Below are positions 45,821 through 62,708 of a stretch of 64,000 nt of DNA, in pieces. Numbering within the stretch: position 1 is the stretch's first letter; the number at the start of each line of letters is the position of its first letter. The translations under genes and the position numbers were made by a program. The notes beneath the pieces are model-generated. The model did not search any database. It was not told the origin of the DNA and was given only the letters and a program-made list of their open reading frames with translations. Origin of the DNA: Streptomyces sp. NBC_01198 (GTDB lineage: Bacteria > Actinomycetota > Actinomycetes > Streptomycetales > Streptomycetaceae); the NCBI RefSeq assembly GCF_036010485.1, contig NZ_CP108568.1, positions 5,029,001 to 5,093,000 on the forward strand, in the 5' to 3' direction.

Positions 45821-45920
45821 CACTTTACGGGACGGGTGTGACAGGACAGGTCTCGAAAGCAACACGGCTTCGTCCCTGCTGTGTTGCACGGGGAACCCTC
45901 GCCCTCGACGCTCGCCTGGT

Positions 45921-46010
45921 CACACCCAGGAGTCGAACCACATCCTGGCCTGCCAGCCGGTGTAGGGGATCGTCATGCCGGTGTAGATCGGGAAGAAGTA
46001 GATGAAATTC
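45921..46010 (-). repeat. attL: duplicated 3' end of pmt
   Basis: This stretch encodes the last residues of Pmt (I-Y-F-F-P-I-Y-T-G-M-T-I-P-Y and onward to D-S-W-V-stop) without the rest of the gene. Bases 45924-45959 are identical to 60988-61023 (36 bp); rightward to 46010 the copies differ at five positions, mostly silent third-codon changes plus one Ser/Thr change. Within the identical block CCAGGA-N11-TCCTGG (45926-45948) forms inverted core arms, typical of tyrosine recombinases. Confidence 0.9.
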
Positions 46011-46020
46011 CGATTCCTTG

Positions 46021-46077
46021 GGCACGTAGACCCCTGGCCAGGGCAGACGCACTGACCAGGGGGGAGCCTACGTGCCG
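46021..46077 (-). terminator. Integrase terminator hairpin
   Basis: Outer arms GGCACGTAG / CTACGTGCC and inner arms CCCCTGG / CCAGGGG form a two-tier stem spanning the integrase stop codon region, just inside attL. Confidence 0.65.
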
Positions 46078-47333
46078 GGGGCCGTCTGTGGGCCGTCCGG
46101 CTGCTCATCAAGAGCCGGGAACACGTTGTCCACGGCCTTCCGTGTGCGGCCCTCGCTGCTCGGCATGAGGTGCGTGTACACGCGGAGTGTGAAGCCGGGG
46201 TCGCTGTGGCCGAGGTAGGTGCTCAGGGCCTTGATGGTCTCCCCGGCGTCCAGCAGGACCGAAGCGTAGAAGTGCCGCAGGGCGTGCATGCCGTGCTCGC
46301 GTGCGGCCGGGTAGCGCTCGCCAGGCGGAGGCTTCGGGATGAGGCCAGCGGTGGCCAGGGCAGGCTTCCACATGAAGTCATCGAAGTAGCTTGCCCGTAC
46401 GGTATTGCCCGTATTGCCAGTGAACACCAGTTCCTTGGTCACGAGAGGCCCGGTCGGCGTGATCCACGGCAACGTGACCTTGACGGTCGGGAACTCCCGC
46501 ATGTGGGCGCGGAGCGCAGCCGCGACAGTAGCCGGCAGAGGAACGTCGCGGAGCCTGCCCCGTTTGGGCGGGGCAAACACGAGCTTGCCGCGGACACGCT
46601 TGACCTGATTGCGCACGGCCAGCCATTCGCCCGCGAAGTCCACTTCGTCGGCCGGCAAGCCGAAGATCTCGCCCTGACGCAAACCGCAGCCGCCGCCGAT
46701 GTCGACCATAGCTCGGAACCGCTTGGGCAACGCGCCTCGGACCGCGAAAACGTGCTCCGTCCGCCACGGCGTAATGCGCGACGGGGCCCCCTGGGGTGCC
46801 CTGACCGACTTGGCCAGGCACGGGTTACGTGGGATCAGGAGGTCATCCACCGCGGCGCCGAACACTGTGGACACCGTTCCGAAGATGATCCGGCGGTACG
46901 ACTCCGTTGGCGCGGTGTTCTTCAACTCCTCAAGCCAGTCGCGAACGTGCGCAGGCTGGAAGGCAACCAACGGGCGCGACCCGATGAGCGGGTTCACGTG
47001 AAGGCGCAGTTGTCGTTCGATCGCGTCTCGCCCACCGATGCTGCCCGAAGCGCTGGCGGCCCAGCGTTCGGCGTACTGCTGGAAGGTGGTGCGGGCGGCT
47101 TTGGGGTCGACGTAGTGGCCGCCTTCCATGTCGGCCTTGGTCTTGGCGAGCCAGGCTTCGGCGAGGCGCTTCTGTCGATCGGGGAAGCTCTTGGACTTCT
47201 CGGTTCCGTCCGGGCCGATGTAACGGGCGCGGTACCGCATGCCTGTTCCGTGGCGGTCGGTCTTGACTGTGATGGACTTGCCATCGGGGGTGGTGACGGT
47301 CTTGTACCAGCGGTCCTGGATATGCCCTGCCAT
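46068..47333 (-). CDS. int: Tyrosine recombinase integrase
   Basis: 421 residues: an AP2-like arm-binding N-terminus, a SAM-like core-binding domain (80-170), and a catalytic domain with the full set R219 (C-G-L-R-Q-G-E), H350-x-x-R353, H376 (L-G-H-S-D) and Y386 (R-V-Y-T-H). It should integrate and, with the excisionase, excise the element at the pmt site. The ATG at 47333 has AGGAG upstream. It lies next to attL. Confidence 0.95.
   Translation of the reverse strand: MAGHIQDRWYKTVTTPDGKSITVKTDRHGTGMRYRARYIGPDGTEKSKSFPDRQKRLAEAWLAKTKADMEGGHYVDPKAARTTFQQYAERWAASASGSIGGRDAIERQLRLHVNPLIGSRPLVAFQPAHVRDWLEELKNTAPTESYRRIIFGTVSTVFGAAVDDLLIPRNPCLAKSVRAPQGAPSRITPWRTEHVFAVRGALPKRFRAMVDIGGGCGLRQGEIFGLPADEVDFAGEWLAVRNQVKRVRGKLVFAPPKRGRLRDVPLPATVAAALRAHMREFPTVKVTLPWITPTGPLVTKELVFTGNTGNTVRASYFDDFMWKPALATAGLIPKPPPGERYPAAREHGMHALRHFYASVLLDAGETIKALSTYLGHSDPGFTLRVYTHLMPSSEGRTRKAVDNVFPALDEQPDGPQTAPGT
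46078..46100 (+). repeat. Subterminal direct repeat, left copy
   Basis: A 23-bp sequence (starting GGGGCCGTCTGTGG) in the 3' end of the integrase gene recurs identically at 60867-60889, about 100-120 bp inside each element end and in the same orientation. It could be an integrase arm site. Confidence 0.6.
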
Positions 47334-47418
47334 GGGTGGCGACTCCTGGAAGGTATGGCGGCGGCCGGTGGCGAGCAGGTGTGCTCGCCACCGGCCGTGG
47401 TGGTCTGAGCGGGGTGAG

Positions 47419-47610
47419 TCAGGCAGCTTGCGTCTGCTGGTCGATCCAGGTGCGTACGGCGTCGGGGTCGTAGCGCAGGTGTTTACCGACGCGGAATCCG
47501 GGCGGTCCGGTGCGCTTCTTGCGCCAGGCGTAGACGGTTTCGACGCTCGGCAGACGCAATACGTCGGCGAGTTCTTCGGGCGTGAGGAAGTGATCGGGGA
47601 GCGCGGACAC
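47419..47610 (-). CDS. xis: Excisionase-like helix-turn-helix protein
   Basis: A 63-residue MerR/excisionase-type winged helix: T-P-E-E-L-A-D-V-L-R-L-P-S-V-E-T-V-Y-A-W-R-K then F-R-V-G-K-H-L-R-Y, as in AICE Xis proteins. It bends att DNA to favour excision. The GTG start has GGAGGA six bases upstream. It sits 85 bp before int on the same strand. Confidence 0.9.
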   Translation of the reverse strand: MSALPDHFLTPEELADVLRLPSVETVYAWRKKRTGPPGFRVGKHLRYDPDAVRTWIDQQTQAA

Positions 47611-47654
47611 GCGGGTCCTCCGAGATTTGGGGCCGGGGCCCTGTCCTGCCAGGT

Positions 47655-47872
47655 CCGCTACTTCCGCTACCTCCGCTACCGCCCTGGTCAGGGCCTTGAT
47701 CAGGTAGCGGATCGGGGTAGCGGTAGCGGATGGGTCCGCTACCGGCGACGGGTGGCCGGTAGCGGATGTGGGGTGCTGGTAGCGGACAGGTAGCGGATAG
47801 CGGGGTGCGTATCCGCTACCGGGTCCGCGCAGCTCAGGGTGCGTTTTGAAGATCAGGTAGCGGAGGTAGCGG
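47655..47872. repeat. Iteron-like array of GTAGCGG, candidate origin
   Basis: Thirteen exact copies of GTAGCGG or its complement in 218 bp. The complement orientation is at 47655, 47664, 47673, 47736 and 47813; the direct orientation at 47704, 47717, 47723, 47759, 47779, 47790, 47857 and 47866. Many extend to GGTAGCGGA. The last two lie in the 3' end of the DUF3631 gene; the rest fill the gap before xis. Position beside the replication genes suggests a plasmid-type origin or initiator binding array. Confidence 0.75.
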
Positions 47873-49141
47873 ACTTTCCGGGGGTGGGGGGCAGTACCGC
47901 TGCCACGCGTCGTGCAGGTCGGTGGCGTAGTAGCCCTTCATGACGCTGCTGACTCCGGGAGTGATGCTGCTCTTGATGTTGCGGGCGGTGATCGGGGTGT
48001 TGTCCGCGGTCTGGTAGTCGCGCAGCATCTTCGACAGCCGCCGGGCGTCCAGCGGTTTGCCGTACAGGTCCGCCCACGGCGACTCGTCAAGGCTGCACAG
48101 CCTGTCGAGGATCGCGACGGTGGGAAGCCGGTCGATGCCGTTGAATACGTGGTCGCGCAGGTCGGTCAGCAGCCGGATACCGAGTGAGCCTTTGTCATCG
48201 ACCTTCGCGGCCGTGACGAGTTCCACGCACGCGGCCCGTGCCCGGTCCGGCCAGGTTCCCCCCGCAGCGTCGGCGACCGCGAGAAGCGGTTCCCACACGT
48301 CGGCCGGCCGGTCGGTGACCCCGTCCGGCATGGCGGGGAAGACCCCTTCGATGCTGCCGCGGATCTGCTCTGCCCATGCGGCGAGCCGCTTGCCCAGGGC
48401 GTTGCCCTGGCGTTCGTGGATGCGCTGCCGGAAGGGTTCCACCTTCTCGTTGGGGGCGCGGCGCCGCATGCGGATGATGATCGAGCGGGTCAGGATCGTG
48501 TCCGGGAGTGAGCCGAGTCCGGCGACAGCCACCACGGCGTAGGAGGGGAAGGCCTGCACGGTCTGGTTCCCGCCGTCGCCCACACACCGGTACGTCACAC
48601 CGGTCCGGCGGTGGCCTGCGTTGAGGAATCCGCGCAGTTCCTCGTTGTCCCCCGCCTTCGGGCCGAAGACGGTATCGACCTCGTCAAAGAGGATGGTGGG
48701 CCGCCCGTCCGGACCGGACACCGCCCGGAACAGGGCCGCGGCGGACGCGTTCACCGCGACCATCGGCCGCGGCACCAGCGTCTCTACGATCTCCAGCGCC
48801 CTCGACTTCCCCGATCCCGGTTCGGGAGACAGGAACGCCAGGCGCGGTGTGGAGTCGAACGCGTCCAGCAGGTGCGCGTGCGCGTCCCACAACGCCACCG
48901 CGACGTAGCAGGCATCCGAGGGGAAGATGTTGAAGCGCCGGTGGAACGCCTCGACTTCCGCCAGCAGCTCGGCGCCGTCGATGACCTGCGGGCCAGGGCC
49001 AACAGCAGACAGGGCGCCCTGGCGGGCGGCGACCTTCGGCGCCCCACTGCCGGTGGGAGTGCCGGCCGGTTCGGCGGAGCTGGTCTGGTCGGGGGTGGTG
49101 GTGAGGCTTTTCAGCCCGGGGCGGGGTTCGGGGCTGGTCAT
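47834..49141 (-). CDS. DUF3631 ATPase, replication helicase-like
   Basis: 435 residues: a disordered first 60, a P-loop ATPase with Walker A S-P-E-P-G-S-G-K-S and Walker B T-I-L-F-D-E-V-D, and a C-terminal DUF3631 domain (W-A-D-L-Y-G-K-P-L-D-A-R-R-L-S). In AICEs it pairs with a Prim-Pol and probably unwinds DNA at initiation. The ATG at 49141 overlaps the Prim-Pol stop; the 3' end carries two copies of the GTAGCGG repeat. Confidence 0.88.
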   Translation of the reverse strand: MTSPEPRPGLKSLTTTPDQTSSAEPAGTPTGSGAPKVAARQGALSAVGPGPQVIDGAELLAEVEAFHRRFNIFPSDACYVAVALWDAHAHLLDAFDSTPRLAFLSPEPGSGKSRALEIVETLVPRPMVAVNASAAALFRAVSGPDGRPTILFDEVDTVFGPKAGDNEELRGFLNAGHRRTGVTYRCVGDGGNQTVQAFPSYAVVAVAGLGSLPDTILTRSIIIRMRRRAPNEKVEPFRQRIHERQGNALGKRLAAWAEQIRGSIEGVFPAMPDGVTDRPADVWEPLLAVADAAGGTWPDRARAACVELVTAAKVDDKGSLGIRLLTDLRDHVFNGIDRLPTVAILDRLCSLDESPWADLYGKPLDARRLSKMLRDYQTADNTPITARNIKSSITPGVSSVMKGYYATDLHDAWQRYCPPPPESPLPPLPDLQNAP

Positions 49142-50043
49142 GCGCTCTCCCGGGTGCGGGCGGTGCGGATCGACCAGTCCAGTGCGCTGCGGATCGTGGT
49201 GCGGCACTCGGCTGCCGGCAGTCCGGCCGACTCGCCCGCGGCCTGAAAAGCCATCTCTACGGTGGTGCGGTCGAGGTCTTCCCAGGCCACGAACCGGCCG
49301 ACCGCACGGACCGCGCGCAGCAACTCGGCGTTCCGGCCGCCTTCGCCGGTTCCGGCGACCGCGGCTGTCTCGCGTTCGAGCACGGCAGCGGCGAGCCGGT
49401 TCCCGTTACGGGTGGGCATGAGCCGGATTGCGGCCGTAGACGACTTCTGAGGGGCCGTCAGGGCGCTGTGTAGCCAGCCGGGTAGGTCTGCAACGGGTGC
49501 GTCGCTCTCAACGGCGTACAGGCCCGTTCGGGTGATGCTGCCGGGGGCGACGACTTGTCCGCCCCATGCGCGGGTGTCGACCTTGGGTGCGAGGGTGCCC
49601 GCGGTGTTGTGCAGCCGGGCACCAGGCGGGGTGGTGAAGTACAGGTGCTGTCCGCCGCTGGGGGTCCGGACCCGGTAGGTATCGGGGACGGCCTGTCCGG
49701 CGCGCTCGCAGAGCGCCAGGAAGGATGTCGCGCCGTCAGGCGTGCCCTTCTTGTCCTTCGGCTTGAGCGTGTCGAGATCGACCACGACAAGCCCGGCGGG
49801 GCCGGTGGCGGTGCCGACGTTGAACGGTCCGGCCGACCAGCACCGCTCGATGCGGTCGGGGTCGGTGGTGGCGCGCTGCTCGAAGGTGCGGTGCCCGGCG
49901 GTGCAGTCCCCGGTTCGGGGGCAGGTGCGCGCGCCATGTAGGGCGGGGGGCTTGTCGCCGGGGCGAAGCGGGATGACGGGCCAGCCGCGTGCGGCGACCG
50001 CGAGCGCCGCGGACAGCAGCGCGGATCGGGTGGCTTGGGTCAT
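49138..50043 (-). CDS. Bifunctional DNA primase/polymerase (Prim-Pol)
   Basis: 301 residues of the archaeo-eukaryotic primase fold: A-A-R-G-W-P-V-I-P-L at the start, a CxxC-type zinc segment (C-P-R-T-G-D-C), the metal site V-V-D-L-D near residue 90, and T-P-S-G-G-Q-H-L-Y-F near 130. Prim-Pol is one of the AICE replication initiators known besides RepSA and RepAM. ATG 50043 follows AGGAG. Confidence 0.92.
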   Translation of the reverse strand: MTQATRSALLSAALAVAARGWPVIPLRPGDKPPALHGARTCPRTGDCTAGHRTFEQRATTDPDRIERCWSAGPFNVGTATGPAGLVVVDLDTLKPKDKKGTPDGATSFLALCERAGQAVPDTYRVRTPSGGQHLYFTTPPGARLHNTAGTLAPKVDTRAWGGQVVAPGSITRTGLYAVESDAPVADLPGWLHSALTAPQKSSTAAIRLMPTRNGNRLAAAVLERETAAVAGTGEGGRNAELLRAVRAVGRFVAWEDLDRTTVEMAFQAAGESAGLPAAECRTTIRSALDWSIRTARTRESA

Positions 50044-50133
50044 GCTGGGGGTACTCCTGTTCCTTGTTGTGGAGCGGGTGAGCCGGGACGGCCGCGGTTC
50101 TTTGGCGAGATGCGGCGGCCGTCCCGGGCGAAG

Positions 50134-50739
50134 TCAGGTGCGGGCAGCGGTGGCGGCGGCACGAACCACGGCGAGCGCCTGTTCGCGGCCGATGTGGGGC
50201 TGGTCGTTCCATTGCGGGAACGGCAGGTTGATTCCGCGGGAGCGCAACAGCGCGTTGATGTGGTGGCCTGCGGTGGTGGCGGTGTCGTGGGTGCCGTAGC
50301 CGAGCCGGAAAACGGTGTATTGGGCACCGAGGATGCAGCGGCGGCCGGTGGCGGTGCGGATGCGGGTCCCGGTCTGTGCCCATCCCCATTGCTCCAGCAC
50401 CGCGGCGGTGAGGTCGAGATGGTCGGCGACCGGGATACGCAGGCGCGCGACTCCCTCGCCGCGGCGAGCGGGGTGCAGGAACAGCAGCCGGTCGGGCAGG
50501 ATCCGCCACAACCCGCCGGGCAGGATCACGCCGGCCGCAGTCGTCGGGGTGGTCGGGGTGAGGTCGGCGAGCGCTTCGGCCACAAGATCTGCGGTGGGCG
50601 CGGTGACGAGCCGGTGCGCGGTGCGGGCCGGGTCGGTGAGCCACGCTTCGATCTGGTCGACCAGGTCAGCACCGAGCGTGTCAACGTCGGCGAGCCGCGG
50701 CAGCGCGGCGGCGGTGGGCGGGGTGGTGGTGTGGGTCAT
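50134..50739 (-). CDS. Conserved AICE protein, DUF6197-like
   Basis: 201 residues. The centre reads G-W-A-Q-T-G-T-R-I-R-T-A-T-G-R-R-C-I-L-G-A, a pattern I associate with DUF6197, followed by a helical end with F-P-Q-W-N-D-Q-P. No enzyme motif is seen. It belongs to the minus-strand transfer/replication operon. The family label is from memory; the function is unknown. Confidence 0.7.
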   Translation of the reverse strand: MTHTTTPPTAAALPRLADVDTLGADLVDQIEAWLTDPARTAHRLVTAPTADLVAEALADLTPTTPTTAAGVILPGGLWRILPDRLLFLHPARRGEGVARLRIPVADHLDLTAAVLEQWGWAQTGTRIRTATGRRCILGAQYTVFRLGYGTHDTATTAGHHINALLRSRGINLPFPQWNDQPHIGREQALAVVRAAATAART

Positions 50740-50765
50740 GGCGGGGGGTTCTCCGTTCCGTACGG

Positions 50766-50960
50766 TCAGGTGCGCATCTGTGCGAGGGAGTGGGCGAGGC
50801 TGGCCATGACCTGATCGATGGGTCCGGCGGCGCCGGTGGCGGCGGCGTAGAAGCCGAAGAGGAATACGACCAGGGCGGCGCCGAACGAGGTGGACTTGGC
50901 GCGGATCGCGAAGAGGGACGCGACGCCGAAGAGCAGCACGGCGGAGATGGACAGGATCAC
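50766..50960 (-). CDS. Small membrane protein, spread-type
   Basis: A 64-residue protein with two membrane helices (about 2-20 and 27-45) separated by A-K-S-T-S. A GTG at 50960 with GGAGAT upstream is the natural start. Its position between transfer and replication genes suggests a Spd-type role in intramycelial spread. Confidence 0.65.
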   Translation of the reverse strand: MILSISAVLLFGVASLFAIRAKSTSFGAALVVFLFGFYAAATGAAGPIDQVMASLAHSLAQMRT

Positions 50961-50982
50961 GGGCGGGATCTCCGATCGGTGG

Positions 50983-51234
50983 TCAGCGGGTGCCGCGGTC
51001 GTAGGTGTGGTGCCAGAGGTTGTAGAGGTGGCGTCCGCGGCGTATGCGCTTGCCGGTGGTCTTGCAGTGGCGGCAGGGCTTGCCTCGCTTGACGGTGCCG
51101 CGGCGGGTGACCTTGGTCGCGTGGCCCATGCCGCCGCAGCGGCGGCAGTCCGCGAACGGCTGGGCCGCACACAGACTCGCGTAACACAGTGTGACGATGA
51201 GCAGGCAGGCGCTAGCAAGGAGGAGGAGAGTCAC
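50983..51234 (-). CDS. Membrane-anchored small zinc-finger-like protein
   Basis: 83 residues: an N-terminal helix (2-24) and two DnaJ-like cysteine pairs, C-R-R-C-G-G-M-G and C-R-H-C-K-T-T-G, likely binding one zinc. The GTG at 51234 has GGAAGG seven bases upstream. Such small zinc proteins recur in AICE operons; the function is unknown. Confidence 0.7.
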   Translation of the reverse strand: MTLLLLASACLLIVTLCYASLCAAQPFADCRRCGGMGHATKVTRRGTVKRGKPCRHCKTTGKRIRRGRHLYNLWHHTYDRGTR

Positions 51235-51315
51235 GGGATGCCTTCCAGGCGGGGTTTCGGGTGTTTGCGCAGGTCGGCTGCTAGGTGCGAGATCGCAGCT
51301 CAGGCGCTGGGCGGG

Positions 51316-51365
51316 GTGCTAGTAGAGGTGCTAGGTCTAGCACTTGGCGGTGCTAGACCTAGCAC
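51316..51365. promoter_or_regulatory. CTAG-rich palindrome cluster after traB
   Basis: Five copies of GTGCTAG or its complement in 50 bp. The two longest units, GTGCTAGGTCTAGCAC (51328-51343) and its exact reverse complement (51350-51365), face each other over 6 nt. CTAG is very rare in Streptomyces DNA. It starts 9 bp after the translocase stop. Possible roles are a transcription stop, a repressor operator for the following genes, or the cis transfer locus recognised by TraB. Confidence 0.6.
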
Positions 51366-51374
51366 TCTTCCGAG

Positions 51375-53630: not shown

Positions 53631-53774
53631 TGAATGTCCTTCCCGGACACATGGGGTTGGAGGGGTCCGGATGGCGCTTTGGACGGCCTACCGTCCGGAC
53701 CCCGCTATGTGGTGCGTGCCCCGGGCCGCATTCGATGCGGCGCCCTCACGGCAGATCGCCGGGGCTGGGCTGAG

Positions 53775-54164
53775 CTAGGCGGCGCGCTGTTCGTCGGGGT
53801 AGGCGCAGGGCACGCAACTGCCGAGCGACCCGGGGATGACGTATCCGGCATCCGTGCGGCAGACCGGGCAGGTGCGGCGGGCGAGCATCGCCGCAGCGTG
53901 CGCCGCCCACTTCGCGGGTGTCATCGGCCGGACCGGCTTTGCCAAGTCGATGCGGTAGAGGTAGGCGACTGCGTAGCCGGTCTTGCGACGCCGGGAACTG
54001 CGCATGATCTGAGCAGCGACCGGCTGACCACCGGGACGCAGCCCCTTCGCCCGCAACTGCCGGCGGGTCGCCATGCCGTCCGGGGCGAGCCGCCACGGGA
54101 ACGTAGGCGTTCCCCAGGTGGCGCCGGTCGGGTCGTAGCACCGGCCGAACGTCGGGGACATCAC
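53775..54164 (-). CDS. RRQRL motif-containing zinc-binding protein
   Basis: 129 residues with A-T-R-R-Q-L-R-A-K-G-L-R-P-G-G near residue 32 and two cysteine pairs at the C-terminus (C-P-V-C and C-V-P-C), plus R-C-Y-D-P near the start. It matches the small RRQRL family found in Streptomyces mobile elements; the function is unknown. The GTG at 54164 overlaps the GGDEF gene stop; ATG follows as the second codon. Confidence 0.8.
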   Translation of the reverse strand: MMSPTFGRCYDPTGATWGTPTFPWRLAPDGMATRRQLRAKGLRPGGQPVAAQIMRSSRRRKTGYAVAYLYRIDLAKPVRPMTPAKWAAHAAAMLARRTCPVCRTDAGYVIPGSLGSCVPCAYPDEQRAA

Positions 54165-54796
54165 GCCACCGCCGATCCGGCGGTACCGGGCCGTCCGGAC
54201 CGGCGCCCCGCAAGCGTCGCGAACAGGCTGCCGATCCCTGCCCGGCGGACACCGGCGCGGGCGCGCTTCGCCGCGTACATCGCCTCATCGGCCCGGCGCA
54301 GCAACTCCGGCAGTCCCTCGCCGGGGAAGTCCGCGGTCCGGACCCAGCCGAGCGAGACCGTGGTGTGCACGGCAGGGTCAAGACCGGCCGCAGGCCGGGC
54401 GAGCACACCACCCAGCACGGCAAGCATGTCGCCGACCGTGCCGTGCTGGTCGATGAGCACCGCAGCGAACTCGTCACCACCCAGCCGCCCGGCAACCCCG
54501 TGCGGGCCGGTGTAGTGGGCGAGCCGGTCCGCGGTCGCCTTCAACAGCGCGTCCCCCGCGGCGTGCCCGTGGGTGTCGTTGACCTGCTTGAAGCGGTCCA
54601 CATCGGCGAGCACCACCACCGCGCGCGGGTCGCGCAGCAGAACGGTGGCGCGGCGGGTGAAGCCGTCCCGCGTCCACAGCCCGGTCAGCGGGTCACGGCG
54701 AGCCGTGTTCAACCGGTGCCGGAACCACAGCAGGTGGGCCGACCAGCCCGCGGCCAGCGGTATGCCGGCCACCGCGGCAGCTAACAGGGTGCTCAT
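54161..54796 (-). CDS. GGDEF protein, predicted diguanylate cyclase
   Basis: 211 residues: one N-terminal membrane helix (about 2-24) and a GGDEF domain with D-P-L-T-G-L near 35, metal-binding D65 (V-D-R-F-K-Q-V-N-D) and an intact G-G-D-E-F at 106-110. The inhibitory RxxD site expected just before GGDEF is absent. It should make cyclic di-GMP, which in Streptomyces controls development through BldD. ATGA overlaps with both neighbours place it in the transfer operon. The ATG at 54796 is chosen. Confidence 0.88.
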   Translation of the reverse strand: MSTLLAAAVAGIPLAAGWSAHLLWFRHRLNTARRDPLTGLWTRDGFTRRATVLLRDPRAVVVLADVDRFKQVNDTHGHAAGDALLKATADRLAHYTGPHGVAGRLGGDEFAAVLIDQHGTVGDMLAVLGGVLARPAAGLDPAVHTTVSLGWVRTADFPGEGLPELLRRADEAMYAAKRARAGVRRAGIGSLFATLAGRRSGRPGTAGSAVA

Positions 54797-55752
54797 GCCG
54801 CCACCGCCCGCGGCCCGTTGTGGCCGGTCGTACGGTCGGCGCGCAGGGTGTCGCGGACGGCCCGGGAGTGGGCGGCGCCGCAACTCACGGCCTGCCGGAT
54901 ACGGTCCGCCGTCAGATGCTCGAACGGCCACCCGGCGGTGACCGCACGGGCCTCGGTCAGCACGTCATCCAGCGAACGCCGACCGGACTTCGCCGCAGGC
55001 TTCGCGGACCGCTTGCGCGCGGACGCCTTCGGCCCGACCGGCGGCGCGGCAGGGTCCACGCCACCGGGCACCGGGACCGGCTCAGGGTCGGCGGCGGGGG
55101 CGAGTTCCCCGAGCTTGAGCAGCACGCGGGTACGGCGGTCGGTCTTGGCCCGCCACCGGCGGCCGTGTTCCGACCGCAGGTCCGCGCGGGCGAGCTGCCG
55201 TCCCCGCTCCCGGGCCAGCGCGTCGCTGTAGGAGGTGATCTCCCACAGCGTCATCCGTCGCCACAGCGTGAACGTGGACAGTGGGGCGAGCAGCCAGCGG
55301 GAACGGCGGATCTTCTCCATACGACGGCCGGTCACTGCACCGATCCGTGCCGCGTAGACGTGCGCTGCGACCTCGGAGAGCACCACCCACAGCAGCGGCA
55401 TCGTGCCGTGCGCGACCTTCGCCGACAGCGACGTGCCCGCGGCGATGTTCAGCCAGCACGTCACCCCCGTGAGCAGCCAGGGCACGAACCGCGCCCAGGC
55501 AAGTGGCATGTCCATGCGGATCAACAGCAGATTGATCACGGTGAACACCGGGATGGCCAGGTCGATGGCCAGCGGCAGCATGCCCGGCGTCGTGAAGCCC
55601 CAGCGGGCAGCGGCCGCAGAGACCGTGTCGAACGACATGGCGAGCCCCACGCCGCCCACACCCACACCCAGCACCGTTGCCGCGACCAGCAGCACCCGGT
55701 CAACTCGCGACAGCGGCGGAAGGTCGGTCCGCCCGGTCTCCGGGGCGCTCAT
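54793..55752 (-). CDS. DUF2637 spread-type membrane protein
   Basis: 319 residues: four membrane helices (about 20-40, 60-78, 88-108, 118-138), the DUF2637 core with L-P-L-A-I-D-L-A-I-P, then a basic linker and a C-terminal helical domain that resembles a winged helix. DUF2637 proteins occur in Streptomyces conjugative plasmids near Spd functions. The ATG at 55752 overlaps the upstream gene. Confidence 0.85.
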   Translation of the reverse strand: MSAPETGRTDLPPLSRVDRVLLVAATVLGVGVGGVGLAMSFDTVSAAAARWGFTTPGMLPLAIDLAIPVFTVINLLLIRMDMPLAWARFVPWLLTGVTCWLNIAAGTSLSAKVAHGTMPLLWVVLSEVAAHVYAARIGAVTGRRMEKIRRSRWLLAPLSTFTLWRRMTLWEITSYSDALARERGRQLARADLRSEHGRRWRAKTDRRTRVLLKLGELAPAADPEPVPVPGGVDPAAPPVGPKASARKRSAKPAAKSGRRSLDDVLTEARAVTAGWPFEHLTADRIRQAVSCGAAHSRAVRDTLRADRTTGHNGPRAVAA

Positions 55753-56045: not shown

Positions 56046-56192
56046 GGGTCGTGCACTCCTTAGACGGTGGGAACGGCCCAACCAGCACCCCCGGAGTAGT
56101 CGCTCCGGGGGTGCGCGCCGTTCATGGTGGGAGTGCCCCGAGCCGGATCCGATCCGGCAGCATCACGCCGGGTCCGGGGCTGGTCGTACGGG

Positions 56193-56549: not shown

Positions 56550-56719
56550 CGGCGACCACTCCCGTTGATCGTCTGCTTGTGCAGGTTGGCCTTGGTTACC
56601 GCTTCGCCGCGGGAGGGGCCGGAGCGGCCGTAGGCGCCGCAGGAACAGATAAAGCCGTAGTTGCCAAAGCCGTAGTCCTGGATGGTGGTCTCGTGGGTTT
56701 CGCGCTTGAACAGGCCCAT
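56546..56719 (-). CDS. Small Cys-containing AICE protein
   Basis: 57 residues starting M-G-L-F-K-R-E-T-H-E-T, with F-I-C-S-C-G-A-Y-G in the middle and a polar helical end. It resembles a single zinc knuckle (C-S-C). GGAGGAA precedes the ATG at 56719. No function is known. Confidence 0.65.
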   Translation of the reverse strand: MGLFKRETHETTIQDYGFGNYGFICSCGAYGRSGPSRGEAVTKANLHKQTINGSGRR

Positions 56720-56830
56720 CGGGTGGGTTCCTCCGCTGCCGTGTGGTGCGGGCCGGACTGTCCGGCTCTCCGTCACCGCCCACCCACCGGACGCACCGGC
56801 AGGTGAGCGGATCAGACAACCGTCAGCCGG

Positions 56831-57307
56831 TCACAGCAGAGTGATCAGCAGCGCGGCGACCAGCAACCACAGATGGTGGAAGGACTGGTCAAGCGCGTAC
56901 GCACCGGTCCCCAAATGCGCGGCGGGCTTGCCCTCACCGGTAACCGGATGGGCAGGGTGCGCACCGGTGCCGAGCGAGTAGAACTCGGCCTTCCCGGTCC
57001 GTGTGGCCAGCCACGCCAACGTGGTGCGACGGTCCGCCCACCAATGCGTCACCGCGTCGACTCCCAGCCCGGCAAACAGGCCCCACACCGACAGATGCAG
57101 ACCCAGCAGCACGGCCGCGGGCAGCAGAACGACCAGCTTGGTCGCGGTGAGGGTCGCGACGTGCCGGGCACCGGCCAACCGACCGACCCAGCCGGGGCGA
57201 CCCTTGGCCGCGGACTGAGCGGACGTCTGAACCCAGTGATCCCCCACACTGTGGGCGACATACAGGGCCGCGAACACCGCAGCGAATGTACCGGCAGCGG
57301 CACTCAC
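56831..57307 (-). CDS. DUF3307-like membrane protein
   Basis: 158 residues with four hydrophobic segments and two metal-like motifs H-S-V-G-D-H-W-V-Q-T (near 19) and V-D-A-V-T-H-W-W-A-D-R (near 83), a pattern like DUF3307 proteins. It may act in the envelope during transfer or entry exclusion; this is inference. The GTG at 57307 overlaps the stop of the 30-residue gene upstream. Confidence 0.7.
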   Translation of the reverse strand: MSAAAGTFAAVFAALYVAHSVGDHWVQTSAQSAAKGRPGWVGRLAGARHVATLTATKLVVLLPAAVLLGLHLSVWGLFAGLGVDAVTHWWADRRTTLAWLATRTGKAEFYSLGTGAHPAHPVTGEGKPAAHLGTGAYALDQSFHHLWLLVAALLITLL

Positions 57308-57396
57308 TTGCCGCTCCCGTTCTCGCTGCGCTTGTTAGCCTCAGCGACCTTCCGCGACAGTTCCGCGGACTCTTCCTCTGTCAGACTGATGAACAC
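57304..57396 (-). CDS. 30-residue peptide gene
   Basis: Encodes a 30-residue, helical, charged peptide (F-I-S-L-T-E-E-E-S-A-E-L). GGGAGG lies four bases before the GTG at 57396, and the stop overlaps the next start (GTGA), supporting real translation and coupling. It could also be a leader peptide. It is the first gene of the transfer operon. Confidence 0.5.
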   Translation of the reverse strand: MFISLTEEESAELSRKVAEANKRSENGSGK

Positions 57397-57838
57397 AGGT
57401 CCTCCCAACAGGTCCTGTACGCGGTCCCGGTGTTTGCCCACCGGGGCCGCACTCGTTTGGACCACTCGCCACGAGCGGCCACGGCCCGTGACCTCTGCCT
57501 TGCAAAGGCAGAGGTCAGGGACTGTGGTCACTGGTGTGAGGACTGCACTGGCCGGCCGTTGCTGCGGCGTGCCAGTCCCGAGCCCTCTTCGGGTGCACCA
57601 TCTCTCTACCTGGCGCAAGAGCAGGGCAGCTCACATCAGGTGGCACCCCATGGAAGGGCGTTCCCCAGAGCCGATGTGCGGTACGTACCGAGCCGACGCT
57701 CGGGACCGCTGCCGACGAGCCTCACCCGGTCGTCACGGGGGCGGGAGTCTCACCCGTCGAAGTTCACTGTTCAGTTCTCAAGATCCAGGCACTTCCTTCG
57801 GACCCCTGTCACCGGGTCCTCCGGGCGCTTCACGAGCT
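57397..57838 (-). promoter_or_regulatory. Long leader of the transfer operon
   Basis: No gene is evident in these 440 bp. On the minus strand TTGAGAACTGAACAGTG (within 57762-57783) closely matches the antitermination-like segment of Streptomyces 16S-23S rRNA spacers as I recall it (TTGAGAACTGCACAGTG). Farther down, TGACCTCTGCCTT and its complement (57489-57517) form a perfect 13-bp stem with a 3-nt loop. Together they suggest an RNA leader with a processive-antitermination signal and a hairpin. Confidence 0.5.
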
Positions 57839-57898
57839 AGCGTGCACTAGTCCACACTGTCTTGGCAACCCATCCAGCAGTGTGGACTAGCGCACGCT
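57839..57898. promoter_or_regulatory. Paired GntR operators
   Basis: Two 21-bp arms (57839-57859 and 57878-57898) are reverse complements with one mismatch. Each contains a smaller dyad: GTGCACTAGTCCAC and GTGGACTAGCGCAC. They lie between gntR and the divergent transfer operon, as expected for repression of both by the GntR protein. Confidence 0.7.
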
Positions 57899-57916
57899 GC
57901 CAGATACGCTGGTTGC

Positions 57917-58282
57917 ATGACGATTGCCAAGGACGGTCCGCGCCTGCCGTCAGTGCAGGTCGCGGACGCGTTGCGCAAGGAACTCCAAGAGGGCGCGTAC
58001 GCCCCGGAAGAGAAGCTGCCTTCGATCAAGGCGCTCGCCGATCGCTTCGGCATTGCCGAAGAGACGGTCAAGAAGGGGTTGGCCACGCTCAGGACAGAAG
58101 GGCTGATCTTCTCCGTCCCCAACCGAGGACACTTCGCCGTAGGCTCGGATCGCGAGAGTGACGCCGCAGTGAACAGTCCTGATGATGTGCGCGAGTCCAT
58201 CGACGCCCTCCGATCCGAAGTCCAGAAGCTCAGTGCCCGAGTCGCACAACTGGAGAAGAAGTCCGACCCGGGCGACGCTTGA
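57917..58282 (+). CDS. GntR family repressor (KorSA-like)
   Basis: 121 residues. A GntR winged helix fills residues 8-75 (L-P-S-I-K-A-L-A-D-R-F-G-I-A-E-E-T-V), then a short linker and a C-terminal coiled coil (90-115). It lacks a ligand-binding domain, like KorSA, the pSAM2 repressor of transfer and replication. The paired dyads just upstream are the likely targets. Less GC-rich than the chromosome. Confidence 0.9.
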   Translation: MTIAKDGPRLPSVQVADALRKELQEGAYAPEEKLPSIKALADRFGIAEETVKKGLATLRTEGLIFSVPNRGHFAVGSDRESDAAVNSPDDVRESIDALRSEVQKLSARVAQLEKKSDPGDA

Positions 58283-58320
58283 ACAACAACCACAATGGGT
58301 TGCCAGGAACGGCACGCACA

Positions 58321-58409
58321 GTGACACCGACAGGTCAGGAATGGACAGGGCGGACACCCCCGGTGTCACTGCCGTGTCACCTTGACTGTCACCAGGTCCG
58401 CCGTAGTCA
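58321..58409 (+). promoter_or_regulatory. Promoter and TGTCAC repeats before the XRE gene
   Basis: GGTGTCAC-like sites occur at 58321-58328 (reverse), 58362-58369, 58373-58380 and 58385-58392, the last three about 11-12 bp apart on one face of the helix. TTGACT (58382-58387) and TAGTCA (58404-58409) with a 16-bp spacer form a candidate promoter overlapping the last site. Confidence 0.5.
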
Positions 58410-58436
58410 GATCGGAGCACACCCGGAGGAGGGCGA

Positions 58437-59687
58437 ATGAGCGACGATCGACCGTCTTGGGCACGGCGCATGGTTGCCGAGCGGGAATCACGCGACTGGT
58501 CTCAGGCCGAAGCCGTCCGCGCACTGCGTGCGCACTCACCCAAGGACTTGCCGGACGACGCGAACATGCTCCGACAGTGGAAGCGTTGGGAGACGGGTGC
58601 CGCGATGCCGGGCACGTTCTACCAGCCGATCATCGCGGCCATGTTCGGAACCGTCACTCACGCACTGTTTCCCTTGAAGGGAAAGCGTGATGCAAACGCG
58701 GAAATCGCGGCGGCTAGCGGCATGGAAACACTTGAGATCGTGAGCCGTCTGCAAGCGTCGGACGTTGATAACGCCACAATTGAAGCGCTGCGCATCACGG
58801 CCGACAGGCTGTGCTCCGAGTACGCATTCCTCCCGAGCGAACAGCTCATCGTTGAAGGTCGCGCTTGGCTTCGCCGCGTCGGTCAACTCCAAGGGCAACG
58901 GCTCACCCTCGCGCAGCACCGCGAGGTGCTTACCCTCTCCGGCTGGCTCGCGCTCCTCGTCGGATGCGTCGAATACGACAGCGGCGGTAGGCGCGCGGCC
59001 GAATCGACGCGTCGAGCGGCACTTTCCCTGGCTCACGAAGCGGAAAACGCAGAGATCCAGGGATGGGCTCACGAAATGCGCGCCTGGTTCGCCCTCACGA
59101 CAGGCGACTACCGCGGCGTTATTGCAGCCTCACAGACGGGTGCCGCCATCGCGCCCAACCACGGCGTTGCCGTGCAGCTTGCGGCACAAGAAGCCAAGGC
59201 ATGGGCACGCATCGGAGACCGTCGTCAAACGGAAGTCGCGCTCGACCGCGGTCGGCGGCTTCTCGAAGGGATGCCGCATCCCGACAACCTCGACAATCAC
59301 TTCGTTGTGGACCCCGCAAAGTTCGACTTCTACAGCATGGATTGCTACCGGTTGTTGGGCGAAGACCGTCTGGCCCGCACGCTCGCGGAGGAGGTTCTTC
59401 GTCTCGGCATGGAGTTTGACGACGCGGAGCACTCACCGATGCGCAACGCAGAAGCGCGCATCACCCTCGGAGTAGCCGCAGCCCGTGAAGGCGACCTAGA
59501 ACAGGCACTCGCGTACGGAGAACGCGCGCTCGTCGGCGACCGGCAATCGGTCCCGTCGCTCCTCATGGTGAGTAGGGAACTGGCGGCCGTCGTCAAAGAC
59601 CGCTACCCCACAGATCCGGCAGCTCAGGACTACCTGACGCATTTACACGATCTAGGCAAGGCGCGGCCCGGATTCCTGCCGGCCTAG
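58437..59687 (+). CDS. XRE-type HTH regulator with TPR-like domain
   Basis: 416 residues: an N-terminal helix-turn-helix (about 5-70, with L-R-Q-W-K-R-W-E-T-G) and about 300 residues of tetratricopeptide-like helical repeats (A-L-A-Y-G-E-R-A-L near the end). HTH-plus-TPR proteins of the RRNPP type bind signalling peptides; in an AICE it could activate replication or excision, as Pra does in pSAM2. GGAGGAGG precedes the ATG at 58437. Lower GC than the flanks. Confidence 0.85.
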   Translation: MSDDRPSWARRMVAERESRDWSQAEAVRALRAHSPKDLPDDANMLRQWKRWETGAAMPGTFYQPIIAAMFGTVTHALFPLKGKRDANAEIAAASGMETLEIVSRLQASDVDNATIEALRITADRLCSEYAFLPSEQLIVEGRAWLRRVGQLQGQRLTLAQHREVLTLSGWLALLVGCVEYDSGGRRAAESTRRAALSLAHEAENAEIQGWAHEMRAWFALTTGDYRGVIAASQTGAAIAPNHGVAVQLAAQEAKAWARIGDRRQTEVALDRGRRLLEGMPHPDNLDNHFVVDPAKFDFYSMDCYRLLGEDRLARTLAEEVLRLGMEFDDAEHSPMRNAEARITLGVAAAREGDLEQALAYGERALVGDRQSVPSLLMVSRELAAVVKDRYPTDPAAQDYLTHLHDLGKARPGFLPA

Positions 59688-59828
59688 CAACAAGGATCGG
59701 CCCTCACCGCGGCGGTCCCCGATGTGTCGGGGGCCGCCGTACGCGTTCCCCGCTGCGTGTCTAACTGCGCTACAACAGCCGCGTACAGTGGCGAACAACC
59801 ACGGACGACGGTGGACCGTTCGCGCAGA

Positions 59829-60110
59829 TCAGACGGGGGCGACCACAGGTCGTGAGGTTGCTCGGATTGCTTCAAGCTCTTCGGGGGCTTCGAGGGGCGA
59901 GCCTCCGGGTACGCGATACGAACTCCGCCCACGAACCTCCAGCGCGCCTTCGACGACGAGTCGAGATAGGACTTGGCGGAGTGCCGTTCGGCCAATTCCT
60001 AGTTCTTCGGCGAGGGTGCGTTCCGATGGAATTTTGTCGCCAGGGTTGAATTCGCCGTATTTAAGACGCGCCCGGATGGAATCGTAAGCTTGCCTCGTCT
60101 TCGGTCCCAT
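59829..60110 (-). CDS. Short GntR family regulator
   Basis: 93 residues consisting of a winged helix only (P-S-E-R-T-L-A-E-E-L-G-I-G-R-T-A-L-R near 28) with a short acidic tail. It has no effector domain. The ATG at 60110 has a GAAGAG motif upstream. It shares a lower-GC segment with the next cargo gene, and may regulate it. Confidence 0.85.
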   Translation of the reverse strand: MGPKTRQAYDSIRARLKYGEFNPGDKIPSERTLAEELGIGRTALRQVLSRLVVEGALEVRGRSSYRVPGGSPLEAPEELEAIRATSRPVVAPV

Positions 60111-60170
60111 TGAACTCTTCGTTCCCTTTAATTGCTTCGGTGAGGTATCAGGTTTCCGTGAGGCGATCGG

Positions 60171-60734
60171 CTACCCCCGGGGTGCAGAAGGCCACCGAGC
60201 AAGTGCTGTTCCCCAATCCAGCGATTCTAGCAATTCCCTGTACAGGTCAACAATATCCTGTCGGGTGGCGGCGATCCTATCGGCGAGTTCATCTACGTCG
60301 GATGGAGTGAACTCCCGCTCCTCGAATCCCTTTCTCATGCGACTCCTCATGCAGTAGTACAAGGGTGTACTTTTGTCTGCATTTCCCCACGGGCGAGTAG
60401 CATAATATTCTTCCGTGGGCTCTCCGCCAACCGGGGCGGTCACCCAAGTGCCGTGTATAACTGCATTGCGCAACGCGCGAAGCTGCCCCATGTCTGCAAA
60501 GAGAGACTGGAACTTGGGTCGGTAATTTTCGGTTTTCAGCGTCTCTCTGAGTATCGCCTTAAAGTTTTCGCTCAACCACTCACTGGTCTGCCCTTCAAAT
60601 AGGACCCACGAGGTTCGAGCCCCGTCGATTAGCTCGGATATCATCTCACGCAGCACTTCGTCGAACTGTGCGCTCTCAGCTGCCACCCTACCAATTGCGC
60701 GAAAAAGGTTCGGGTCGTCGACGAAATCAGGCAT
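60171..60734 (-). CDS. HEPN-like cargo protein
   Basis: 187 residues, helical, in a segment with far lower GC than the rest. Residues 84-98 read Q-L-R-A-L-R89-N-A-V-I-H94-G, the R-N-x-x-x-H motif of HEPN RNases, preceded by two long helices (A-A-E-S-A-Q-F-D-E-V-L-R-E-M). Many HEPN proteins act in toxin-antitoxin or anti-phage systems. The call rests on the motif and fold guess. The ATG at 60734 is chosen. It is the last cargo gene before attR. Confidence 0.6.
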   Translation of the reverse strand: MPDFVDDPNLFRAIGRVAAESAQFDEVLREMISELIDGARTSWVLFEGQTSEWLSENFKAILRETLKTENYRPKFQSLFADMGQLRALRNAVIHGTWVTAPVGGEPTEEYYATRPWGNADKSTPLYYCMRSRMRKGFEEREFTPSDVDELADRIAATRQDIVDLYRELLESLDWGTALARWPSAPRG

Positions 60735-60866
60735 GTGCCCCCCTGGGTAGTAGCCGGTACAAGAATATTTGCACATGTGGTGATGGTCGCGAGCACGATT
60801 TCACGTGTTGTGGGGGCTGGTGATCGAACTGACGGCTCCGACCTAAGTCGCCACTCGCGTCGCGCA

Positions 60867-60889
60867 GGGGCCGTCTGTGGGCCGTCCGG
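60867..60889 (+). repeat. Subterminal direct repeat, right copy
   Basis: Identical over 23 bp to 46078-46100. Here it overlaps a perfect hairpin (GTGGGCCGTC, loop CGGT, GACGGCCCAC at 60877-60900). Confidence 0.6.
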
Positions 60890-60927
60890 TGACGGCCCAC
60901 ACCCACTTGTGACAACCGACAACGACC

Positions 60928-60965
60928 GAGGTGCCCCGTGCTGGAGAACCAGCGCGGGGCACCTC
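60928..60965 (-). terminator. pmt terminator supplied by the element
   Basis: GAGGTGCCCCG and CGGGGCACCTC with further inner pairing (GCTGG/CCAGC) form a stem of about 16 bp over AGAA. It starts 18 nt past the pmt stop on the minus strand, inside the element. Confidence 0.7.
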
Positions 60966-60983
60966 GTTGTGCCATTGACCTGG

Positions 60984-62708
60984 CTAGACCCAGGAGTCGA
61001 ACCACATCCTGGCCTGCCAGCCGCTGTAAGGGATGGTCATGCCGGTGTAGATGGGGAAGAAGTAGATGAAGTTCCAGATGATCAGCAGCACCAGGGTGCC
61101 CGCACCGACCGCGCCCCACATCCGGCGGCCCTCGCCGGAACCCGGCGGGCCGAGGAAGGCGCCCACCATCATCGCGACCGCCAGGCAGAGGTAGGGCACG
61201 AAGGCGACGGCGTAGAAGTAGAAGATCGTACGGTCCTGGTAGTGGAACCACGGCAGCAGGCCCGCGCCCACCGCGCACAGGATGGTGCCCGCCCGCCAGT
61301 CGCGGCGGAGCAGCCAGCGGTAGAGCAGGTAGAGCAGGGCGAAGCACGCCGACCACCACAGCAGCGGCGTGCCCAGCGCCAGGATCTCCTTCGAGCAGCC
61401 GCCGGTGCTGTGGCAGCCGTCCTGGCCGAGCTTCGGCGACTCGAAGTAGTACGACACCGGACGGCCGAGGATCAGCCAGCTCCACGGATTGGACTGGTAC
61501 GGGTGGGGCGTGTGCAGCGTCACATTGAACTGGTAGACCTCGTACTCGTAATGCCACAGGCTGCGCAGCGGGGCCGGGATCCAGGACCAGGTGCCGCCGC
61601 GGTTGTCCGCCCAGTGCCGGCCGTAGCCCTTGTCGGACAGGAACCAGCCCGTCCAGGTCGCCAGGTAGGTGAGCAGCGCGACCGGGATCATGGTCAGCAC
61701 CGACCAGCCGAAGTCCTTGCGCAGCACGGCCAGGACGGGCCGGCGGGCGCCCGCCAGGCGGCGCGCGCCGATGTCCCAGGCCAGGGTCAGGATCACGAAG
61801 AAGGCCAGGAAGTACAGGCCGTTCCACTTGCTCGCCGCGGCGAGGCCGAGGAAGACCGCCGCGGCGATCCGCCACGGGCGCCACCCCATGCCGACCCGGT
61901 CGCCGACCCGCCGGTCGGGACCCGCCCAGCCGGACTCGTCCACCGGCAGCGCCCGGGCCAGCCGGGCTCTGGACCAGTCGCGGTCCACCAGCAGGCAGCC
62001 GAAGGCCGCGAGTGCAAAGAACATGATCACCAGGTCGAGCAGCGCGATCCGGCTCATCACGAACTCCAGGCCGTCCACCGCCATCAGCAGCCCGGCCAGG
62101 CAGCCCAGCGCGGTGGAACGGAACAGCCGCCGCCCGATCCGGCACAGCATCAGCACCGCCAGGGTGCCGAGCACGGCCATCATGAAGCGCCAGCCGAAGG
62201 GGTTCATGCCGAACATCCACTCGCCGACCGCGATCACCCACTTGCCGGCCGGCGGGTGCACCACGTAGCCGGGTGCGTCGGACAGCGGGATCGTCTGCGG
62301 ATGGCCCAGCAGGTCCGGGTTGGTGATCTTGGCGTCCGGCCAGGTGCCCTCGTAGCCGAACTGCAGCAGCGACCAGGCGTCCTTGGCGTAGTACGTCTCG
62401 TCGAAGACGACCTCGCGGGGCGTGCCCAGGTGCCAGAAGCGCAGCGCGCCCGCGAAGACCGCCACCAGAACCGGGCCGAGCCAGCCGGAGATCCTGGCCA
62501 GCAGGTAGGAGACCTCCTGGCTCGCGCCCAGCGAGCGCCACATCTTCGTACCCGGCTCGGGGAACGGCGGCACCAGGCGCTCGCGGGTGTCGGTCCGCGG
62601 CCTCTCCGCGTAGCCGAACCTGCGCAGCCGTTGCGCCCAGGGGCTCGGATGCGGCTGTTCCAGAACAGCCTCTGCGGCCCGGTCCTGCGTCGCGGTCTCA
62701 CTCGTCAC
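60984..62708 (-). CDS. pmt: Protein O-mannosyltransferase (GT39)
   Basis: A 574-residue GT-C membrane enzyme that moves mannose from polyprenyl-phosphate-mannose to exported proteins. After a cytoplasmic N-terminus (about 75 residues) come about 11 helices; the first outer loop has the catalytic D-E-T-Y-Y-A-K-D-A-W, and P-P-A-G-K-W follows. In S. coelicolor Pmt is needed for phiC31 infection. The GTG at 62708 is chosen. The last residues are rebuilt from AICE-borne sequence; the displaced original 3' end lies at 45921-46010. Confidence 0.93.
   Translation of the reverse strand: MTSETATQDRAAEAVLEQPHPSPWAQRLRRFGYAERPRTDTRERLVPPFPEPGTKMWRSLGASQEVSYLLARISGWLGPVLVAVFAGALRFWHLGTPREVVFDETYYAKDAWSLLQFGYEGTWPDAKITNPDLLGHPQTIPLSDAPGYVVHPPAGKWVIAVGEWMFGMNPFGWRFMMAVLGTLAVLMLCRIGRRLFRSTALGCLAGLLMAVDGLEFVMSRIALLDLVIMFFALAAFGCLLVDRDWSRARLARALPVDESGWAGPDRRVGDRVGMGWRPWRIAAAVFLGLAAASKWNGLYFLAFFVILTLAWDIGARRLAGARRPVLAVLRKDFGWSVLTMIPVALLTYLATWTGWFLSDKGYGRHWADNRGGTWSWIPAPLRSLWHYEYEVYQFNVTLHTPHPYQSNPWSWLILGRPVSYYFESPKLGQDGCHSTGGCSKEILALGTPLLWWSACFALLYLLYRWLLRRDWRAGTILCAVGAGLLPWFHYQDRTIFYFYAVAFVPYLCLAVAMMVGAFLGPPGSGEGRRMWGAVGAGTLVLLIIWNFIYFFPIYTGMTIPYSGWQARMWFDSWV
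60988..61023 (-). repeat. attR: identical 36-bp block in pmt
   Basis: Identical to 45924-45959, coding for the C-terminal residues of Pmt. It contains the CCAGGA-N11-TCCTGG inverted core. Beyond the block to the right, the native gene differs from the attL copy by scattered substitutions. Confidence 0.9.

What the first reader, a model, noticed from the sequence alone, without database searches (positions are those of the whole stretch)
45924..61023. Complete AICE integrated in the 3' end of the protein O-mannosyltransferase gene
The final part of pmt exists twice, 15,064 bp apart, with 36 identical bp. Between the copies lie all AICE modules. Most described AICEs use tRNA genes. Here the site is a protein-coding gene whose product is a phage-receptor glycosylation enzyme in S. 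coelicolor. The element restores the pmt reading frame and even supplies a terminator. An insertion specificity tied to pmt may be undescribed.
Basis: partly seen in the sequence, partly recalled or inferred. Interest (0 to 1): 0.8.

Follow-up and report, generated by a model that had tools for sequence, protein, structure and literature searches.

The report
Conjugative element in mannosyltransferase gene end
A 15-kb mobile element of soil bacteria sits at the end of a protein-glycosylation gene, carries its own copy of that gene's last 27 or so codons so the gene keeps its reading frame, and belongs to a group of elements that use this same address in other Streptomyces relatives.

Summary
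Confirmed and extended. The 3' end of pmt is duplicated 15,064 bp apart (97 bp, 92%, longest exact run 36 bp) around an actinomycete integrative and conjugative element (AICE): tyrosine integrase, HTH excisionase-like gene, Prim-Pol/DUF3631, FtsK-like translocase. Site specificity is shared by a clade: 24 of the 80 best integrase relatives lie beside a pmt tail, and in a 92-integrase tree all 26 pmt-site integrases form one clade (100/99). Other relatives lie at glutamine synthetase, nusG or a 15-bp repeat. Only one distant relative of 110 scanned loci had a tRNA on the scanned side. Eleven of 35 genomes of the genus have an uninterrupted pmt-PBP junction; a circular 18.5-kb record carries a pmt-tail attP. 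Crossover probably lies in a 15-17-bp core at the 5' end of the repeat, not in the 36-bp run. The element then supplies the last ~27 codons, stop, hairpin and an arm-type repeat. Unexpectedly, a genome's two tails are 97.6% identical on average against 76.9% between genomes, suggesting that the element-borne coding tail is rewritten to the resident allele. Pmt changes by one residue at most; a phage-resistance role is unsupported. New variant of a known kind.

The parts
60984..62704 (-). pmt, protein O-mannosyltransferase, intact; last ~27 codons read through the pmt-side tail copy (start codon approximate; ORF open from 63131)
   Evidence: Pfam PMT, PMT_4TMC; reading frame
60979..61075 (.). 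copy of the pmt tail, pmt side (attR-type)
45915..46011 (.). copy of the pmt tail, integrase side (attL-type)
61054..61070 (-). proposed crossover core, pmt side; contains the 15 bp without mismatch in 25 pairs
   Evidence: distance from int as in the sister clade
45990..46006 (-). proposed crossover core, integrase side
60927..60966 (-). element-borne hairpin just after the pmt stop (terminator-like)
   Evidence: 70 nt after the stop: MFE -46.4, z -7.2
60868..60885 (-). arm-type repeat ACGGCCCACAGACGGCCC, pmt side (role inferred)
46079..46096 (-). same arm-type repeat inside the 3' end of int
46068..47333 (-). tyrosine integrase
   Evidence: Pfam PF00589; clade of pmt-site integrases
47419..47610 (-). 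excisionase-like HTH_17 protein (role inferred)
   Evidence: Pfam PF12728
47834..49207 (-). DUF3631 protein, probably replication
   Evidence: Pfam PF12307
49138..50043 (-). Prim-Pol primase/polymerase
   Evidence: Pfam PF09250
50134..50739 (-). DUF6197 protein
   Evidence: Pfam PF19698
51375..53630 (-). FtsK-like DNA translocase (TraB-type); weak Pfam match below the curated cut-off
   Evidence: PF01580 E 0.00099, 19.1 bits against 24; 55% identical to an annotated FtsK of circular relative L196
53775..54164 (-). RRQRL motif zinc-binding protein
   Evidence: NCBIfam NF041638
54161..54931 (-). GGDEF (diguanylate cyclase) domain protein; GGDEF motif present in the translation
   Evidence: Pfam PF00990, TIGR00254
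54793..56088 (-). DUF2637 protein; true start probably further in
   Evidence: Pfam PF10935
57917..58282 (+). GntR-family regulator
   Evidence: Pfam PF00392
58437..59687 (+). NsdA-family TPR-like regulator
   Evidence: NCBIfam NF053720
59829..60110 (-). GntR-family regulator
   Evidence: Pfam PF00392
   Evidence: synteny

Best explanation
The element is an AICE of about 15.06 kb whose tyrosine integrase recognises the 3' end of pmt. Shown by sequence: pmt is intact up to a duplicated tail, the element lies between two tails, uninterrupted relatives exist, and in the trees made the integrase clade is found only at pmt. Inferred: the integrase exchanges strands in a 15-17-bp core near the 5' end of the repeat. 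On integration the host's own last ~27 codons end up on the integrase side, next to PBP. Pmt is then completed by an element-borne tail that brings stop codon, terminator-like hairpin and an arm-type integrase-binding repeat. Excision with the HTH protein restores pmt-PBP and a circular attP. The element-borne tail is kept close to the resident pmt allele, probably by recombination between the two tails during excision and reintegration or by gene conversion.
For: Duplication and modules. Of the 80 best relatives, 24 have a pmt tail just after int; of 92 integrases the 26 at pmt form one clade, 100/99. Circular 18,451-bp record L196: its ends overlap by exactly 66 bp, within a pmt tail, and its integrase falls inside the pmt clade. 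Genus, own genome included: 5 of 35 with element and both tails on one contig, 1 split over contigs, 3 remnants with a second tail, 11 uninterrupted. No mismatch at -85..-71 in 25 tail pairs. Position -85 lies 63-69 bases after the int stop in 21 of 24 and 45-46 in 3; the sister clade's conserved sequence starts 63-64 (4 loci) or 91 bases (4 loci) after int. Hairpin after the stop: 20 of 25 pmt-side tails with z below -2, against 4 of 24 integrase-side and 0 of 11 uninterrupted sites. Arm repeat (up to 3 mismatches) near the int end in 24 of 25 and after the pmt stop in 25 of 25. Flanks joined at the core match an uninterrupted relative.
Against: No excision or transfer was observed. The FtsK match is below Pfam's cut-off and NCBIfam gave none. 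Within -70..-28 neither copy is clearly host-like or element-like by correlation or against uninterrupted relatives, so the core position rests on the abrupt 5' limit, the zero-mismatch block and the sister clade; that block is also well conserved between hosts (90%). In L174/L091 int and tail are about 700 bp apart, in L196 about 2 kb. Nine genomes of the genus have PBP 0.8-6 kb away without a detected second tail and five have no PBP in the stretch fetched. Two of the 11 uninterrupted ones (G028, G034) show bases after the stop that, by eye, resemble element ends and may be scars. The 66-bp overlap of L196 may be an assembly effect.
Confidence: 0.9

Rival explanations
1. Same AICE, but the crossover is near the stop codon (for example at the invariant ATGTGG, -24 to -19), so that the integrase-side tail is element DNA and the pmt-side tail host DNA.
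For: The longest exact run in the window (36 bp) lies there; ATGTGG is invariant in 25 pairs; both copies look equally host-like.
Against: It does not explain why similarity starts within a few bases of -87 to -91 in the pairs, nor the shared distance from int with the sister clade's conserved sequence. ATGTGG codes Met-Trp, which have single codons, so invariance is expected.
Confidence: 0.2
2. Tail identity within genomes only reflects recent transfer within a species, with no rewriting of the element's tail.
For: Tail pairs differ at up to 6 sites. In 6 of 18 close-integrase pairs the post-stop DNA is more divergent than the tail.
Against: In 12 of those 18 pairs the pmt-side tail differs more than the post-stop DNA, e.g. 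L020/L017: integrase 4.8%, post-stop 7%, tail 23%, yet no mismatch between each genome's own tails over -70..-28; L019/L020: 8.1%, 16%, 40%, 0 and 0. Ten of the 12 come from one group of five genomes. Integrase and host distances correlate only at 0.19.
Confidence: 0.3
3. The duplication is a chance or recombination-derived repeat and the region a decayed island, not a site-specific element.
For: Remnants do exist at this site (G031, G009, G019).
Against: The integrase and other modules are open, and the layout recurs in 18 of 18 placed relatives and in a circular record.
Confidence: 0.02
4. The element targets pmt because altering Pmt protects the host from phages that need glycosylated receptors.
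For: pmt mutants of S. coelicolor are phage resistant (PMC5882110, passages).
Against: The encoded Pmt is full length and differs from the flank-joined version by one residue; 39 of 49 tail mismatches are at third codon positions (counted).
Confidence: 0.03

Closest known systems
AICEs with tyrosine integrases, pSAM2/SLP1 kind (surveyed in PMC3218068, passages)
   Same: Integrase, replication gene, FtsK-like translocase, att repeats in the 3' end of a conserved gene; excisionase, spread and GntR genes and size as recalled
   Different: Target is a protein-coding gene, and the repeat carries ~27 codons plus stop, followed by a hairpin; that survey found the vast majority at tRNA genes
pSLS integrase subfamily (PMC3218068)
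   Same: Its AICEs are the stated exception to tRNA integration
   Different: The pSLS sequence was not found here, so kinship could not be tested; its target gene is not named in the passages seen
AICE03 of strain RLB3-6 in rlmN (PMC9513070, passages)
   Same: AICE in a protein-coding gene, with an integrase different from that of its family
   Different: Repeat of 11 nt, other gene
Circular record NZ_CP107792.1 of Streptomyces sp. NBC_00562 (L196)
   Same: Integrase in the same clade; GGDEF, DUF2637, FtsK, Prim-Pol and HTH genes; pmt-tail attP
   Different: 18.5 kb, about 2 kb between int and att; deposited as a plasmid

Membership tests
AICE | Chromosomal integration with direct att repeats | tested here: met
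AICE | Integrase and excisionase genes | tested here: met
   PF00589 and HTH_17; excisionase role of the HTH protein inferred
AICE | FtsK/SpoIIIE-type transfer protein | tested here: inconclusive
   Pfam match below cut-off, none in NCBIfam, but 55% identical to an annotated FtsK of L196
AICE | Own replication gene (RepSA, RepAM or Prim-Pol type; types recalled) | tested here: met
   Prim-Pol and DUF3631
AICE | No type IV secretion genes or relaxase | tested here: met
   none among the 19 element ORFs scanned with Pfam; other ORFs not scanned
AICE | Excision to a circle and conjugal transfer | not testable with these tools
   only indirect: circular relative L196
pmt-site integrase clade (defined here) | One clade, its members next to a pmt tail | tested here: met
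   26 of 26 in 92 rows, 100/99; 27 of 27 with L196 in 46 rows
pSLS integrase subfamily | Groups with the pSLS integrase | not tested
   pSLS sequence not found; one guessed accession was another plasmid
pSLS integrase subfamily | Integration outside tRNA genes | tested here: met
   pmt, and for relatives glutamine synthetase and nusG 3' ends; tRNA only beside distant L003 of 110 loci, one side scanned

The most novel reading that the evidence does not exclude
The integrase family picks 3' ends of conserved protein-coding genes, and in the pmt clade the element-borne coding tail acts as an exchangeable gene end that is overwritten with the resident pmt allele (down to about 10 bp before the stop), so that the attachment site follows synonymous drift in each new host and Pmt stays functional. 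This would be a self-updating attachment site.
Probability: 0.45. Interest if true: 0.65.

Novelty: new variant of a known kind. Interest (0 to 1): 0.47.

Why it matters
It adds a well-supported integration address for conjugative elements in Streptomycetaceae, with proposed core, arm repeats and uninterrupted attB, which could serve as a chromosomal integration site for vectors in laboratory strains. Because the target is coding DNA with synonymous variation, it also lets one ask how an attachment site keeps matching its host, which invariant tRNA targets hide.

Tried and rejected
Rejected: the 36-bp run as crossover core. Inconclusive: deciding which copy is host-derived by comparison with uninterrupted congeners or by correlation with host and integrase distances; a gradient of mismatches along the tail (Spearman 0.26, p 0.07; the ratio rises only at -10..-4, three variable sites). 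Checked and not a counter-example: the broken integrase of G019 (L100), not at pmt, belongs with the glutamine synthetase group (96.6% to L025, and the same gene end follows). No viral relative: no viral contigs stretch matched a pattern; phage matches are all below 60% identity, 29% at best in the rows listed. No PADLOC match for 7 element ORFs. GGDEF is not a clade feature: 2 of 29 other pmt-clade stretches (three genomes twice) and 3 of 56 other loci, many cut at 10 kb. A strict pattern for the pmt tail matched 120 of 249 family genomes; two matches within 40 kb on one contig appeared in G000, G001, G002, G004, G022 and, outside the genus, only G123 (19.4 kb apart); the pattern misses divergent tails. 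Rows dropped from the 92-row tree: 17 of 27 loci (repeats of records, distant or broken) and 4 of 6 (distant).
Full report
Observation. The window holds an intact pmt on the minus strand with stop at 60984-60986 and, 15,064 bp away, a second copy of its last part. The alignment is 97 bp at 92% identity, with exact runs of 36, 17 and 17 bp. Both copies read ...MWFDSWV-stop. Between them lie a tyrosine integrase, an HTH_17 protein, DUF3631 and Prim-Pol genes, a weakly matching FtsK-like protein, RRQRL and DUF2637 genes, a GGDEF protein, two GntR regulators and an NsdA-family regulator. The window lies in an unnamed 7.9-Mb genome; several genomes of its genus have contig sizes and positions equal to records named Actinacidiphila, so the genus is probably that one (inference).

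The site specificity belongs to a clade. The genome scan kept the 80 best of 231 integrase relatives. In 24 of these 80 a pmt tail follows the integrase; in the 24 tail pairs measurable, position -85 of the tail lies 63-69 bases after the integrase stop in 21 and 45-46 in 3. A tree of 92 integrases (80 loci, 10 of 27, 2 of 6) puts all 26 pmt-associated ones in one clade with support 100/99. ARAGORN, run on 110 loci (some genomes twice), found a tRNA within 700 bp after the integrase only for L003, a distant relative at 28% identity; the far side of the elements was not scanned. Related integrases end beside the 3' end of a glutamine synthetase gene (L028, L098) or nusG (L069, L058), shown by Pfam for these four examples. 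The group next to the pmt clade has the sequence AACACCCCATCTTGCC 63-64 (4 loci) or 91 bases (4 loci) after int; a second copy of at least 15 bp 8.8-11 kb away was found in three of the six loci tested (L036, L046, L051), the loci being cut at 10 kb.

The site without the element exists. pmt was found in 34 of 35 genomes of the genus, the window's own included. In 11 the PBP gene match starts 94-242 bp after the pmt stop; two of these (G028, G034) show element-like bases after the stop by eye and may be scars. Five (G000, G001, G002, G004, G022) have the element with both tails on one contig, one (G007) has them on two contigs, three (G031, G009, G019) keep a second tail without a whole integrase nearby, nine have PBP 0.8-6 kb away without a detected second tail, and in five no PBP was found in the stretch fetched. 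Joining the window's flanks at the 17-bp core gives a sequence that aligns to the uninterrupted congener L115 over 2,848 columns at 87.9%; L116, L117, L119 and L120 align in two pieces with a gap in the intergenic part.

A circular form is on record. NZ_CP107792.1 (18,451 bp, circular, called a plasmid) has the same kind of gene set and an integrase 64.6% identical. Its two record ends overlap by exactly 66 bp, and that overlap lies in a pmt tail. When its integrase was added to a tree it fell inside the pmt clade, 27 of 27, 100/99. The overlap could be an assembly effect at the att repeat, but the record still joins the element through a pmt-tail attP.

Anatomy of the attachment site, from 25 genomes with both tails (L024 missing, not held). 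Similarity begins within a few bases of position -87 to -91 before the end of the stop codon, and no mismatch occurs from -85 to -71 in any pair. After the stop the copies are unrelated in most pairs, 37% identity on average. The repeat ACGGCCCACAGACGGCCC (up to 3 mismatches) occurs at the end of int in 24 of 25 and 77-108 bp after the pmt stop in 25 of 25, with only a few other matches in the loci. The 70 bases after the pmt stop fold strongly on the pmt side (mean z -3.83, 20 of 25 below -2; 60 shuffles each), unlike the integrase side (mean -0.62, 4 of 24) or uninterrupted sites (mean -0.33, 0 of 11). I infer attP as: arm repeat in int, spacer, core, coding tail, stop, hairpin, arm repeat. 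That these repeats are integrase arm sites is inference from position and pairing.

Unexpected point. Over -85..-5 the two tails of one genome are 97.6% identical on average, tails of different genomes 76.9%; the genome's own partner is the best match in 23 of 25 (20,000 permutations, none as high). Mismatches between -85 and -6 number 49, of which 39 are at third codon positions (counted from the list). In 12 of 18 genome pairs with integrase distance below 0.16 the pmt-side tail (-70..-28) differs more than the post-stop DNA; ten of these come from one group of five genomes, and in 6 of 18 it is the reverse. The clearest are L020 and L017, which differ by 4.8% in integrase and 7% after the stop but 23% in the tail, while each genome's two tails are identical over -70..-28. 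The ratio of within-genome to between-genome mismatch is about 0.1 from -70 to -11 and 0.58 at -10..-4 (three variable sites). The element-borne tail is therefore probably rewritten to the resident allele. The mechanism is open: conversion between the repeats, excision by homologous recombination, or migration of the integrase junction. Against it, correlation tests could not tell the copies apart, the informative pairs are few and not independent, and recent transfer within a species explains part.

Effect on pmt. The integrated gene encodes the same protein as the flank-joined one except one residue, S for T. pmt mutants of S. coelicolor are phage resistant and more antibiotic sensitive (PMC5882110, passages); nothing here suggests such a loss.

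Known work. PMC3218068 (passages) states that the vast majority of tyrosine-integrase AICEs use tRNA 3' ends except the pSLS subfamily. PMC9513070 (passages) counts 36 tRNA, 14 protein-coding and 1 intergenic sites for its integrative elements and names rlmN.

Verdict. An ordinary AICE by gene content, with a pmt site specificity that is shared by a clade and for which I found no description, and a coding attachment site that seems to follow its host.

Noticed in passing
window 54161-54931 (-): GGDEF (diguanylate cyclase) gene inside the AICE, 81% identical over 195 aa to one in circular relative L196. c-di-GMP controls Streptomyces development (PMC6205966, abstract in listing), so the element might influence its host's development.
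   Followed up: partly
window 58437-59687 (+): NsdA-family TPR-like regulator in the element (NCBIfam NF053720).
   Followed up: no
G000:C1:5998357-5999571 (L002): A second integrase, 60% identical, in the same genome; no pmt tail next to it, target not identified.
   Followed up: no
L028, L098, L069, L058: Related integrases end facing intact glutamine synthetase or nusG genes, the gene lying on the integrase side, the reverse of the pmt arrangement.
   Followed up: partly
L016, L174: DNA after the integrase-side tail resembles the element-borne post-stop region, suggesting several elements stacked at pmt.
   Followed up: no
G031, G009, G019 (L170, L171, L189): Remnants with a second pmt tail 1.3-3.8 kb downstream and no whole integrase nearby; pmt-PBP looks like a hot spot in this genus.
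   Followed up: partly
G014, G019, G022, G029: pmt match split in two pieces with a short gap at residue 358 and no stops; probably an insertion in the protein of these lineages.
   Followed up: no
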